Below, piece after piece: positions 40,142 through 44,895 of a stretch of DNA of 64,000 nucleotides. The position numbers and the translations under genes are program-made. The stretch's first letter is position 1. Every line of letters starts with the position of its first letter. The stretch is from NCBI RefSeq assembly GCF_023913515.1, contig NZ_CP099391.1:3844001-3908000 (forward strand), read 5' to 3'. The notes beneath the pieces were generated by a model. It ran no database searches, was not told the DNA's origin, and worked only from the letters and a program-made list of their open reading frames with translations. The stretch comes from Natronococcus sp. CG52 (GTDB taxonomy: Archaea > Halobacteriota > Halobacteria > Halobacteriales > Natrialbaceae).

Positions 40142-41320
40142 TCAGAAGCCGAAGATCGGGACGAACCGGAAGGTCAGGAACGCGCCGACCGTCGAGATGA
40201 TCGGGACGACGTTTTGCATGAGGACGACACGAGCCGTCGTCGAGGGGTTGAAAAGATCGGAGGCTTTCGGGATGTCTTCGGGTTCTTCTTCCCCGATGTC
40301 GGGCGAGCGTTCGCCCTCTTCTTCAGCGGTTAAGGCACCCACGGAGACCGTGGTTTCTTCGCCGGCTCTGACGTCCGATAGCGTCGTCGTCCGGGTCGCT
40401 CGTCCCCACCCCAGCCCGATAATGCTCATCGTCGCGATGACGACGAAACTGGCGGGAATGCCGATCCACGAGAGGCCGATGACGATCCCCGAACTGATGA
40501 TGGCGACGACGATCGCTGCCGTCAGCGGGAGATTCGTAATGTCGTTGCCGAGCGTATCGAGCGTTCGTCGAGCGATGGTGAAACAGCCGACGGCGACGGC
40601 GGCCGAGCCGAGCAGGATCAGCGGAATCATATCGACGCCGGTGCCGTAGATCGGTGCGATGGCGTTGGCGATGTTGCTCGTCCCGGAGGAAAAGGCCATC
40701 AGACAGCCGATCCCGACGACGACCAGCGCGCCCGTGATCTCGCGTCGATCGGCGTTCTCGCCGAACTGCAGCCGTGGAACGGTCCCCGAGCGGTCGACCG
40801 TGACCATCTCGCGTCCCTCGCGGTTGCCCTCGATGGCGACCCACGCGTTGATTCGCGGGTAAAAGTAGCGGCCAACGACGCCGGCCACCCAGAACCCGAT
40901 GATCGGGGCGACGACCCACCAGACGACGATCTCACCGAGCACCGCGAAGTCGAGTTCCCCCGTCGCGAGGCCGAGTGCGGAGATCGCGCCGACGGCGGTC
41001 ATCGACGTCGAGGCCGGTACCCCGAAGTAGTTGCCCACGAACAGCGCACCGCCGATGAAAAAGAGGACGGCAACGTTGGATCGGAGGGTGAAGATATCGG
41101 TCGTGTGGACCAGTTCGTCCCCGAGCGTCGTGACGACCTGTGGACCGATCGTGATCGCACCGAGAAAGAAGAAAATCGACATCAACGCGGCCGCCATCAG
41201 TTTCGTGATCACGTTTGCGCCGACAGCGGGGCCGAATGCGGGTCCCGTCGTCGCGCCACCGATATTATAGCCGACGAAAGCCGCGACGAGGAGTCCCACG
41301 ATCAGCAGTACTTCTGTCAC
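40142..41320 (-). CDS. pitA: PiT family inorganic phosphate permease
   Basis: A 392-residue membrane transporter with two related halves. The duplicated PiT signatures are GYNIGGATTGPAFGPAVGANV near the N-terminus and FSSGTSNIANAIAPIYG in the second half. A cytoplasmic loop of about 60 polar residues precedes the last helices. It should move phosphate with a cation. The GTG at 41320 has TTTTTAG about 28 bp upstream. A PhoU-type regulator, often adjacent, is not present. Confidence 0.9.
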   Translation of the reverse strand: MTEVLLIVGLLVAAFVGYNIGGATTGPAFGPAVGANVITKLMAAALMSIFFFLGAITIGPQVVTTLGDELVHTTDIFTLRSNVAVLFFIGGALFVGNYFGVPASTSMTAVGAISALGLATGELDFAVLGEIVVWWVVAPIIGFWVAGVVGRYFYPRINAWVAIEGNREGREMVTVDRSGTVPRLQFGENADRREITGALVVVGIGCLMAFSSGTSNIANAIAPIYGTGVDMIPLILLGSAAVAVGCFTIARRTLDTLGNDITNLPLTAAIVVAIISSGIVIGLSWIGIPASFVVIATMSIIGLGWGRATRTTTLSDVRAGEETTVSVGALTAEEEGERSPDIGEEEPEDIPKASDLFNPSTTARVVLMQNVVPIISTVGAFLTFRFVPIFGF

Positions 41321-41640
41321 ACTGTCACCCACATTGCCCGTCCCTAAAAACGCGGCTATTTGCGGCCGCAACCGCCGACCAGGCACGGCTCAGTCGTCGC
41401 GGACGGGGAGCCGCTGATCGCGCGAGTGGCCCCGATCCGGACGACGTTCTACGAGACGGTTCGATCCTAAAGAACTTCAACCGGCCACACCATGGAATAC
41501 AGTATCATGTACTCCGACTGGAATCTCGTCTCGAGAGAGCCTCAGGGGCGAACTGGATCGTCTCCCCAGTGCGCAGGAATCGACTCTGTCGACGAACGCT
41601 TGGGCCCCATCCGATTCGGACGTGTCGGTGGCGATCGTCT
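41321..41640. other. 320-bp divergent intergenic region
   Basis: It holds the pit promoter on the left. A 40-odd-codon frame from the ATG at 41509 reads into no known pattern and was not called. No repeats or hairpins of note were seen. Confidence 0.4.
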
Positions 41641-42246
41641 ATGCTGAACCCGGTCCGGGTCGATGCAGCCGTCGACCTCGCCTATGGGGCACTGATCGCG
41701 CTCTCGATCGTGCTGATCATGGTTCTCGGCACGAACGTCGGGATCGCGTTCGGGGTAGGCGTGTTCGCTTCGTACGTCATCCACGTCGTCTGGAAGATGG
41801 CGCGTTTCGATCCCGACTGGATGACCAGAGCCGTCCAGGAATCGGTCGAGGAAAGCGTGGGCGAAACCGTCGAGAAGAGCGTCGGCGAGACCGTCGAGAA
41901 GACGGTCGGTGAAACTGTCGAAAAGAAGGTTGGCGAGACCGTCGAAGAAAGCGTGGGCGAGACGGTCGAGGAACGGGTCGGCGAAACCGTCGAGGAACGG
42001 GTCGGCGAGACCGTCGAGGAACGGGTCGGCGAGACCGTCGAAAGGAAGGTCGGCGAGACCGTCGAAGAGGCCGTCGAACGAACCGTCGGCGAACAGCTCG
42101 ACGAGATGCAAGCGGAGGTCGAAGCCGTCGACGAGCGGATCGACCGCCGTCCCCGTGAGGACGAGGTCGAGGAGTTGATCGACAGCTCCGCCGAGGGTGA
42201 TCGAGCGGAGAACGACGAGCGAACGGAAAACGGCGACGACCGCTGA
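41641..42246 (+). CDS. Membrane-anchored octapeptide-repeat protein
   Basis: A 201-residue protein. Residues about 9-50 form a membrane hairpin (LIALSIVLIMVLG and GIAFGVGVFASYVIHVVW). From about residue 68 to 150 there are nine or ten tandem octads of the form VGETVEER, with E/K/R variation at the last two positions. Hydrophobic Val recurs every four residues. A polar, acidic tail follows. The function is unknown; it may form a long amphipathic helix along the membrane, or a scaffold. The frame is open to 41215, but the ATG at 41641 begins the hydrophobic part. Neighbours are PiT and UspA. Confidence 0.72.
   Translation: MLNPVRVDAAVDLAYGALIALSIVLIMVLGTNVGIAFGVGVFASYVIHVVWKMARFDPDWMTRAVQESVEESVGETVEKSVGETVEKTVGETVEKKVGETVEESVGETVEERVGETVEERVGETVEERVGETVERKVGETVEEAVERTVGEQLDEMQAEVEAVDERIDRRPREDEVEELIDSSAEGDRAENDERTENGDDR
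41845..42086 (+). repeat. 24-bp coding tandem repeat
   Basis: About ten copies of a 24-bp unit, such as GTCGGCGAGACCGTCGAGGA plus four variable bases, encode the VGETVEEx octads. Three central units are almost identical at DNA level, while the outer ones differ in synonymous and Lys/Arg/Ser codons. Confidence 0.85.
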
Positions 42247-42335: not shown

Positions 42336-42761
42336 TTACCGAACGACCGTCACCGGAACCGGCGACTGGTGGACGACCTTCTTGGCGACGTTGCCGACGT
42401 AGAGATTATCCGCGATCGTCCCCCCGTGACTGCCGACGACGACCGTATCGTAGTCACCGGCGCGATTGATTATTGCGCGAACGGGGTGTCCCAGATCGTA
42501 AACGGTCTCGAGTTCCGCGTCGCCGTCGGCGCCGTCGACGATCTCGCGTGCCCGATCGAACGTCGACTGGGCGTGTTCCCGTGCTGCCTCCTCGAGATCG
42601 TCGGCGAGCGCGAGGCCGGTCGCTGCTCCCCACATCGACGACGGTTCGCCCACGACGGTCAGGACGGTTATCTCGGCGTCCGGAAAGGCATCGAGGGCGT
42701 ACTCGAGTGCGTGTTCGCTCATCTCCGAGCCGTCCATCGGAACGAGAACGCGCGCAGTCAT
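42336..42761 (-). CDS. Universal stress protein (UspA family)
   Basis: A 141-residue cytosolic protein. VLVPMDGSEMSEHAL is the family N-terminus, and GSHGGTIADNLYVGNVAKKVV near the C-terminus is the G-x2-G-x9-G ATP-binding motif. The role is stress adaptation by an unclear mechanism. GTTTATTCG lies about 28 bp before the ATG. Confidence 0.93.
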   Translation of the reverse strand: MTARVLVPMDGSEMSEHALEYALDAFPDAEITVLTVVGEPSSMWGAATGLALADDLEEAAREHAQSTFDRAREIVDGADGDAELETVYDLGHPVRAIINRAGDYDTVVVGSHGGTIADNLYVGNVAKKVVHQSPVPVTVVR

Positions 42762-43038: not shown

Positions 43039-44895
43039 TCAGACGCCCCAGAGGAACGCGATGCCGAGCACGGTCACGACTGACAGCAGCAACTGCAGCG
43101 GCGCGCCGACCCGGAAGTAGTCGCCGAATCGGTAGCCGCCCGGTCCGTAGACGAACAGGTTCGTCTGGTAACCGATCGGACCCAGGAACGCGGTGCTCGC
43201 CGCGAAGGTGACCGCCAGCACGAAGGCAAACGGGTTCGCACCGATTCCCGCTGCCGCGGCTGCCGCAACTGGGATCAGGAGGACGACGCTCGCGTTGTTG
43301 CTGATCACCTCCGTGATAAGACCCGTGACGATGTAGAACAGCCACAGCACGAGCAGCGTCGGCAGGAACCCCGCCGTCGAGACGACGAGCCAGGCGAGGT
43401 AGGCCGCGGTGCCGGTCCCCTCGAGCGCGATTCCCAGCGGAATGACGCCCGCCAGCAGGAAGATGATGTCCCACTCGACGGCGTCGTACAGCTCGTTCGG
43501 CTCGAGCACGCCGGCGACGATCATCGCCACGACGCCCGCGAGCGCGGAGAGGAGGATCGGATAGATCTCGAGGGCCGCGACGGCGACGACGCCGATCATG
43601 ATGGCGACGGCGATCGGCGCCTTGTCCGCGCGGTAGTCGGGTTGAGGGGGCTCGCGGGCGACGATCACGTCGTCGCTTCGAGAGAGGCGATCGAGCGTCT
43701 CCGGCGGCGCCTGCACGAGGAGCGTGTCCCCGACGTCGAGTCGTTTACCGACGATCCGATCGGCGACGAGTTCGCCGTGGCTCCGCAGGCCGAGCACGGC
43801 GGCGCCGAACTCTTCGCGGAAGCGCTCGGGATCGAGCCGTTCGCCGACCAGTCGCGAGTCCAGCGAGACGATCAGTTCCGTCACCAGCCCTTCCTCCGAC
43901 TCCGGCGCCAGCTCCGCCTCCGTTCTCGGACGGCCGACCGGTTCGACGCCCGCCGCGTCCTCGAGCGTCCTGATCGCGTCGCGGTCCGTGCGGACGACGA
44001 GGACGTCACCCTCCGCGAGGTGCGTCTCCCGTCGCGGCGCGACCGACCGGTCCCTGTCGTGAACGACCTGGACGACGTCGACTTCGGGACCGAGCACGTT
44101 CGTCGCGTCGCCGACTGTTGCCCCCACGAGCGGCGACCCCGGGACGATCGCCACGTCGGCGATGTAGTCGCCAACCTCGTACTCCTCGAGGTAGTCCGCC
44201 CGCGGCGGCACCCGCTCGGGGAGGAGGTAGTGGCTGACGAAGATCAGGTAGAGCGCACCGGTAACGACGACGAGCGCGCCGAGCTGTGTGAACTCGAACA
44301 TCGAGAACCCGTGGAGTTCGGGGTACTCCTCGCCCAGTCGAGCGCTGATGTCGCTCGCGAGGATGTTCGTCGACGTTCCGATGAGGGTGAGCATCCCGCC
44401 GACCTGCGAGGCGTAGGAGAGCGGGATGAGGAGTTTGGAGGGGGAGGTGTTGCCGCGGTTGGCGACGTCGGTGACGACCGGCACGAGCAGTGCGACGACG
44501 GGCGTGTTGTTCAGAAAACCGGAGACGGGACTGGTCGCGAGAACGGTCGCAAACAGCTGTTTGCGGACGCTAGTTCCCGCGTACGACGCCATCCGTCTGC
44601 CGAGTTCCTGGACGAGCCCCGTCCGAGCGATGCCACCGCTCAGAATCAACATCGCCAGCACCGTGATCGTCGCGTCGTTCGCAAAGCCGGAGATTCCGGT
44701 ACTCGCATCGATCCCCGTCCACGGTTCCAGGACGACGAGGATAACGATCAGCAAGATTGCGGTGACGTCGACCGGCAGGCGCTCGGTGACGAACAACGCG
44801 AGCGCGCATAGAACGACGCCGAGGACGACGAGAATGTCCGTCGTCAGCTCCGGTTGCGTCATCGGCTCCTGAGCGAGCACCAGCCCCGTCGACAT
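43039..44895 (-). CDS. SLC13/DASS-type permease with TrkA-C domains
   Basis: A 618-residue transporter. Two membrane halves carry the family pattern: SPVSGFLNNTPVVALLVPV, LIGTSTNILAS in the first and GLITEVISNNASVVLLIPV, GPIGYQTNLFVYGPGGY in the second. Between them lie two cytosolic RCK/TrkA-C domains (about residues 225-400). Such proteins import sulfate, dicarboxylates or other anions; the substrate is unclear. TTGTTACC about 28 bp upstream supports the start. Confidence 0.9.
   Translation of the reverse strand: MSTGLVLAQEPMTQPELTTDILVVLGVVLCALALFVTERLPVDVTAILLIVILVVLEPWTGIDASTGISGFANDATITVLAMLILSGGIARTGLVQELGRRMASYAGTSVRKQLFATVLATSPVSGFLNNTPVVALLVPVVTDVANRGNTSPSKLLIPLSYASQVGGMLTLIGTSTNILASDISARLGEEYPELHGFSMFEFTQLGALVVVTGALYLIFVSHYLLPERVPPRADYLEEYEVGDYIADVAIVPGSPLVGATVGDATNVLGPEVDVVQVVHDRDRSVAPRRETHLAEGDVLVVRTDRDAIRTLEDAAGVEPVGRPRTEAELAPESEEGLVTELIVSLDSRLVGERLDPERFREEFGAAVLGLRSHGELVADRIVGKRLDVGDTLLVQAPPETLDRLSRSDDVIVAREPPQPDYRADKAPIAVAIMIGVVAVAALEIYPILLSALAGVVAMIVAGVLEPNELYDAVEWDIIFLLAGVIPLGIALEGTGTAAYLAWLVVSTAGFLPTLLVLWLFYIVTGLITEVISNNASVVLLIPVAAAAAAGIGANPFAFVLAVTFAASTAFLGPIGYQTNLFVYGPGGYRFGDYFRVGAPLQLLLSVVTVLGIAFLWGV

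What the first reader, a model, noticed from the sequence alone, without database searches (positions are those of the whole stretch)
41641..42246. Membrane hairpin with octapeptide repeats of four-residue periodicity
Nine or ten VGETVEEx units follow two membrane helices. Val every four residues is neither a heptad nor an 11-mer, so the structure is unclear: a strongly twisted amphipathic helix or another fold. The near-identical central units suggest ongoing expansion. Lying between phosphate permease and a stress protein, it could be a membrane-surface or stress protein not described before.
Basis: seen in the sequence. Interest (0 to 1): 0.62.

Follow-up and report, generated by a model that had tools for sequence, protein, structure and literature searches.

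The report
Haloarchaeal phosphate-permease partner with four-residue repeats
A small membrane protein found across salt-loving archaea is usually encoded beside a phosphate permease, and carries a long tail with valine at exactly every fourth residue, a spacing that accepted coiled-coil theory says a helical bundle cannot keep.

Summary
Window 41641-42246 (+) encodes a 201-residue protein: a two-helix membrane hairpin, nine VGETVEEx octads, and a short heptad segment with a conserved RRPREDEVEELI tail. The structural unit is the tetrad V-[E/G]-[E/K]-T; the octad alternates VGET and VEEx. The four-residue register is strict across the family (3368 of about 3,680 hydrophobic spacings are exactly 4; runs up to 66), and all four Val codons are used, so it is under selection. 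A true 4.0 period lies outside the published accessible range for coiled coils. AlphaFold gives a helix hairpin with fair confidence and cannot resolve the repeats.

The family has no Pfam or NCBIfam model. It occurs in 270 of 391 Halobacteria genomes, with no credible hit in other classes. Its strongest link is to one clade of PiT phosphate permeases: divergent from it in the window, and in other families directly upstream on the same strand, often with overlapping stop and start codons. Its presence tracks that PiT clade, also within genera. I read it as an undescribed accessory membrane subunit of PiT, analogous to bacterial PitR or SCO1846 but with no detected homology to PitR. Function and fold are untested.

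The parts
41641..42246 (+). whole CDS, 201 aa, PiT-associated hairpin protein (HP)
41674..41730 (+). TM helix 1 (about residues 12-30); D8, D12, Y15, G16 invariant
   Evidence: AF2 helix 4-29; invariant columns
41737..41802 (+). TM helix 2 (about residues 33-54), Gly-rich G34/G38/G40; H48 invariant
41791..41826 (+). WKMARFDPDWMT juxtamembrane motif (residues 51-62), the most conserved stretch
41833..42099 (+). tetrad register: 23 consecutive hydrophobics exactly 4 apart (residues 65-153), with nine VGETVEEx octads at residues 73-144
   Evidence: TRF array 41845-42069
42085..42141 (+). heptad-spaced segment V149 L153 M156 V160 V163 I167 (4-3-4-3-4)
   Evidence: 50 of 57 RRPR-bearing members share this spacing
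42145..42180 (+). conserved C-terminal motif RRPREDEVEELI (residues 169-180)
   Evidence: RRPR present in 57 of 115 tails
40142..41386 (-). divergent PiT (PHO4) phosphate permease, clade PiT-A
42336..42761 (-). universal stress protein (Usp), convergent neighbour

Best explanation
The protein is an accessory membrane subunit of a haloarchaeal PiT-type phosphate permease. A short N-in/C-in hairpin with an almost invariant face docks on the permease in the membrane (inferred). The very acidic tail runs into the cytoplasm as an extended, probably helical rod of V-x-x-T tetrads, whose length can vary in steps of four residues, ending in a short heptad segment and the RRPREDEVEELI cap (helix from AF2 at low confidence; rod inferred). 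The cap probably joins copies of the subunit or binds a cytoplasmic partner, so that the subunit clusters or regulates the permease, filling the role of PitR in bacteria (inferred). Shown: gene linkage, co-inheritance, paired duplication and selection on the four-residue register. Not shown: physical contact, fold and any effect on phosphate transport.
For: Synteny: 114 distinct members had enough flank to judge; 79 have a PiT-A within 700 bp and 9 more have Usp plus a second PiT. Of the HP-PiT-A pairs, 33 are same-strand with HP directly upstream of PiT, about half with an in-frame start that touches or overlaps the HP stop (offsets -1, -4, -8); 43 are divergent, as here. HP-linked PiTs form one clade of 60, SH-aLRT 100. 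Co-occurrence at order level: HP+/PiT-A+ 68, HP+/PiT-A- 8, HP-/PiT-A+ 2, HP-/PiT-A- 45. At genus level 26/3/2/14, p = 4e-7; in five genera with both states, PiT-A differs with HP, permutation p = 0.001. Paired duplication: Halobiforma haloterrestris (L067) and L155 carry two PiT-A genes, each with its own HP, long and short; distances in HP and PiT correlate, Mantel r = 0.82. Conservation: 24 invariant columns in the first 71 residues over 14 diverse members. PitR-family PF01865 was not found in this genome or in the sampled own family. Bacterial precedent: PitR works with its cognate PitA, and a small unrelated membrane protein, SCO1846, neighbours pitA in genomes of which many lack PitR (PMC13170248).
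Against: 25 of 114 members have no PiT nearby, for example Halorubrum, where the neighbours include an amino-acid permease and a Usp; sampled genomes of that genus mostly do have PiT-A elsewhere. Five own-family genomes and two others have PiT-A but no HP, so PiT-A can do without it. This genome has a second PiT-A paralogue (G000 C1:940229) with no HP. Within the own family there is no presence/absence correlation (p = 0.49). Co-inheritance and Mantel r also follow from two genes travelling as one operon and from shared species history. No complex prediction or experiment was possible.
Confidence: 0.6

Rival explanations
1. A general membrane-anchored surface or envelope rod (scaffold, spacer or stress protein) that has no direct business with PiT; the linkage is inherited neighbourhood.
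For: Orphan members sit beside varied genes (amino-acid permease, TrkA, methyltransferase). Usp is a frequent neighbour.
Against: Linkage to PiT-A is kept in different gene arrangements across many families (divergent, same strand, overlapping), and duplicated PiTs have duplicated HPs. Passive neighbourhood would be unlikely to keep the pair through rearrangement.
Confidence: 0.2
2. A regulator or sensor that uses PiT as its input, passing phosphate status to a downstream partner such as Usp, rather than changing transport itself (a PhoU/PitR-like signalling role).
For: Usp next to HP-PiT in Natrialbaceae and some others; PitR precedent (PMC13170248).
Against: Usp is missing from most same-strand HP-PiT loci outside Natrialbaceae. 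No known sensor domain.
Confidence: 0.15
3. The repeat is an ordinary right-handed coiled coil or disordered linker that merely looks periodic because of tandem 12/24-bp duplication. (This concerns the tail only and can be true together with the PiT-partner reading.)
For: Three central units are nearly identical in DNA. AF2 is not confident in residues 72-139 (pLDDT below 50).
Against: The a-position is 95% Val over 2102 tetrads with all four Val codons in use, while b, c and d vary (aa entropy 0.46 against 1.8-2.1 bits; arrays were pre-selected at 75% or more Val, so this is somewhat circular). A period of 4.0 is stated to lie outside the accessible coiled-coil range, the most extreme known being 3.8 (PMC4786415). 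Total length is kept in steps of 4.
Confidence: 0.2

Closest known systems
PitR (PhoU-like accessory regulator of PitA, Pfam PF01865 PhoU_div)
   Same: Encoded beside a PiT permease; one accessory family per transporter family (PMC13170248).
   Different: PitR belongs to the PhoU-related clade; HP has a membrane hairpin and tetrad tail and no match to PF01865. This genome has no PF01865 match. That PF01865 is the Pfam name for PitR is my own knowledge, not from the paper.
SCO1846-type small uncharacterised membrane protein beside pitA in bacteria (named from Streptomyces coelicolor)
   Same: Small membrane protein of unknown function next to pitA, noted where PitR is missing (PMC13170248).
   Different: Described as one third the size of PhoU; homology to HP could not be tested because the sequence was not held here. 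No repeat tail is described.
Right-handed coiled coils (hendecad 11/3, pentadecad 15/4, YadA 19/5)
   Same: Spacing above 3.63 residues per turn, hence right-handed drift of the hydrophobic stripe.
   Different: HP keeps exactly 4.0 for up to 66 consecutive positions; the expected upper limit is about 3.9 (PMC4786415). The core residue is almost only Val, not Leu/Ile.
T4 gp5 C-terminal octapeptide beta-helix (PF22178)
   Same: Eight-residue repeats with Val and Gly (own knowledge); weak hit, E 0.043.
   Different: Well below the curated cut-off (14.4 against 30.9 bits). Alternation of side chains (V1, E3, V5, E7 on one face) does not suit a beta strand, and AF2 gives helix.

Membership tests
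Any Pfam-A or NCBIfam family | score above the curated cut-off | tested here: not met
   best hits far below cut-off for the whole protein and for 14 hairpin domains (Pfam)
PitR / PhoU-like accessory regulators | match to PF01865 or a PhoU-type family | tested here: not met
   no PF01865 or PhoU match in the protein; no PF01865 in the genome
PitR / PhoU-like accessory regulators | gene adjacent to a PiT permease and inherited with it | tested here: met
PitR / PhoU-like accessory regulators | changes phosphate uptake or signalling with its cognate transporter | not testable with these tools
   needs a deletion mutant
Coiled coil (heptad, hendecad, pentadecad) | hydrophobic period within about 3.33-3.9 residues per turn | tested here: not met
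   period 3.98 for window and family against the limits in PMC4786415; the short C-terminal segment is heptad-spaced and does meet it
Coiled coil (heptad, hendecad, pentadecad) | two or more helices packed side by side | not testable with these tools
   only single-chain prediction available; repeats at pLDDT below 50
SCO1846-type pitA neighbour | sequence homology to SCO1846 | not tested

The most novel reading that the evidence does not exclude
The tail is an ordered helical assembly with a true period of 4.0 residues per turn (for example a regularly underwound or pi-bulged helix bundle stable in molar KCl), a structural class outside accepted coiled-coil limits, used as a length-adjustable rod on an archaeal phosphate permease.
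Probability: 0.25. Interest if true: 0.78.

Novelty: new variant of a known kind. Interest (0 to 1): 0.6.

Why it matters
It gives a large, unannotated haloarchaeal family a testable partner and role, suggests that PiT permeases have acquired accessory subunits more than once, and offers a natural sequence that keeps a 4.0-residue period over up to about 264 residues, a direct test of where the limits of helical supercoiling lie.

Tried and rejected
PDB by sequence: nothing relevant. Pfam/NCBIfam weak hits (SecF, GvpQ, EcsC, Gp5_trimer_C, DUF2884) rejected as low-complexity chance, all far below cut-off. Presence/absence of PiT in general is uninformative, since 390 of 391 genomes have it; only the PiT-A clade is. 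Searching other genomes for the Val-every-4 DNA pattern returned HP itself and what look like antisense reads of Ser/Thr-rich or other low-complexity linkers, so it was not pursued. No structure search was run because both models are of low confidence. Literature: no held paper contains VGETVEE, and the haloarchaeal PiT searches returned no paper whose title or listed abstract describes such a partner (those papers were not read through). Four PF01865 loci in haloarchaea show no match to the PiT query within about 1.5 kb, so haloarchaeal PF01865 proteins do not look like partners of this PiT.

Full report
WHAT IS THERE. The ORF at 41641-42246 (+) is real and starts at the ATG used by its homologues. 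It encodes residues 1-62, a two-helix hairpin ending in WKMARFDPDWMT; residues 65-153, 23 hydrophobics exactly four apart, including nine VGETVEEx octads; residues 149-167, a heptad-spaced stretch; then RRPREDEVEELI and an acidic end. The tail is strongly acidic: net -16 over residues 63-148 and -15 over 149-201; the family median for the whole tail is -43.

IS IT CHANCE. No. The 90.5-degree Fourier peak was not reached by any of 5000 shuffles, and TRF finds the 24-bp array independently. In the own genome the Val-every-4 pattern occurs only in this gene.

THE UNIT IS FOUR, NOT EIGHT. Across 115 distinct members, 3368 of about 3,680 hydrophobic spacings are exactly 4, and the longest run is 66 positions. 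The distance to the conserved RRPR is 2 modulo 4 in 41 of 57 members, but 2 or 6 modulo 8 in 24 and 17. So lengths change by tetrads, and VGET/VEEx is a superimposed alternation. In 2102 tetrads the a-position is 95% Val with all four Val codons used, while the other positions vary. The array is thus under selection as protein, not just copied DNA, although the three central VGETVEER units (1-3 nt apart) look recent. Caveat: arrays were chosen for at least 75% Val at that phase.

WHY THE PERIOD IS ODD. Published limits place coiled coils at about 3.33 to 3.9 residues per turn, the most extreme known being 3.8, and say explicitly that 4.0 is not in the accessible range (PMC4786415). On a straight alpha-helix a stripe at every fourth residue drifts about 40 degrees per step and circles the helix in about 36 residues, so it is a poor membrane-surface amphipathic helix over this length too (geometry, my inference). 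AlphaFold2 gives the hairpin at pLDDT about 73-84 and helix in most of the repeats, but below 50 for residues 72-139; a short paralogue is only slightly better (mean 62.6). The fold of the repeats is therefore open.

WHO HAS IT. With a 14-sequence hairpin profile, 270 of 391 genomes of the class match. In a phylum-wide draw only genomes of the own order match well; the two outside hits are E 0.002-0.004 over partial length. On plasmids the annotated copies are called hypothetical protein. Lengths run from 114 to 361 residues.

WHAT IT TRAVELS WITH. In 79 of 114 members with enough flank, a PiT-A permease lies within 700 bp, and 9 more have Usp plus the second PiT type. In 43 the pair is divergent, as in the window; in 33 HP lies directly upstream on the same strand, and in about half of those a PiT start codon lies at or inside the HP stop. 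PiTs of 58% or more identity to the window's form one clade with full SH-aLRT support in a quick tree (the careful tree did not finish). PiT in general is universal (390 of 391), but PiT-A is not, and it tracks HP: 68/8/2/45 at order level, 26/3/2/14 by genus, and in all five genera containing both states the HP-lacking species has the weaker PiT-A match (permutation p 0.001). The cut between PiT-A and weaker matches was placed by eye at a gap in E-values and is stable for three thresholds; some HP+/PiT-A- cases are split alignments where PiT-A is in fact adjacent (for example G127 and G146). Within Natrialbaceae itself presence does not correlate.

WHAT IT PROBABLY DOES. The simplest reading is an accessory subunit of PiT-A. 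The hairpin is far more conserved than a plain anchor needs: 24 invariant columns, including charged and aromatic residues inside or beside the membrane. Bacteria offer the precedent: PitR is the cognate regulator of PitA, and a small unrelated membrane protein, SCO1846, neighbours pitA and is common where PitR is missing (PMC13170248). PF01865 is not found in this genome or the sampled own family. What the tail does (oligomerise PiT, tether a partner such as Usp, or gate transport) is inference. The N-in/C-in topology is also inferred, from K52 and R55 just after the second helix.

WHAT DOES NOT FIT. About a fifth of members are not beside PiT (25 of 114). Seven sampled genomes have PiT-A without HP. 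The own genome's second PiT-A has no HP. These limit the claim to 'usual partner', not 'obligate subunit'.

VERDICT. The family is undescribed in the libraries and papers I could search; the structural question is the more surprising part and remains open.

Noticed in passing
L067:9905-10255 (-) and L155, L153, L154, L156, L157, L163: Short paralogues (114-130 aa) with the same hairpin and RRPRE-type tail but only a few tetrads, each beside its own PiT-A; the minimal form of the protein.
   Followed up: partly
L052, L058, L112, L164 (Halorubrum type): HP lies not beside PiT but downstream of a BrkB-like gene and, in some, upstream of an amino-acid permease and a Usp; PiT-A is elsewhere in the genome where it was sampled.
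   Followed up: partly
G000 C1:940229-941422: A second PiT-A paralogue (63% identity) in the window's own genome, with no HP: the genome's only HP is the one in the window.
   Followed up: no
window 43039-44895 (-): CitMHS-type transporter with two TrkA_C stretches, a frequent neighbour of HP-PiT-Usp in Natrialbaceae.
   Followed up: no
L123 (G165), L122 (G162): Divergent HP members with DPQWMT or DPDWMV in place of DPDWMT; L123 pairs with PiT-B and Usp instead of PiT-A.
   Followed up: no
window 41542-42111 (-): A 189-aa antisense ORF over the repeat with FDGLAD-like units; mirror of the repeat's codon pattern, no evidence of a gene.
   Followed up: no
164 Halobacteria genomes, PF01865 (L202-L205): PhoU_div proteins occur in 33 of 164 genomes; in the four loci checked none has a match to the PiT query within about 1.5 kb, so their transporter partner in haloarchaea is unclear.
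   Followed up: partly
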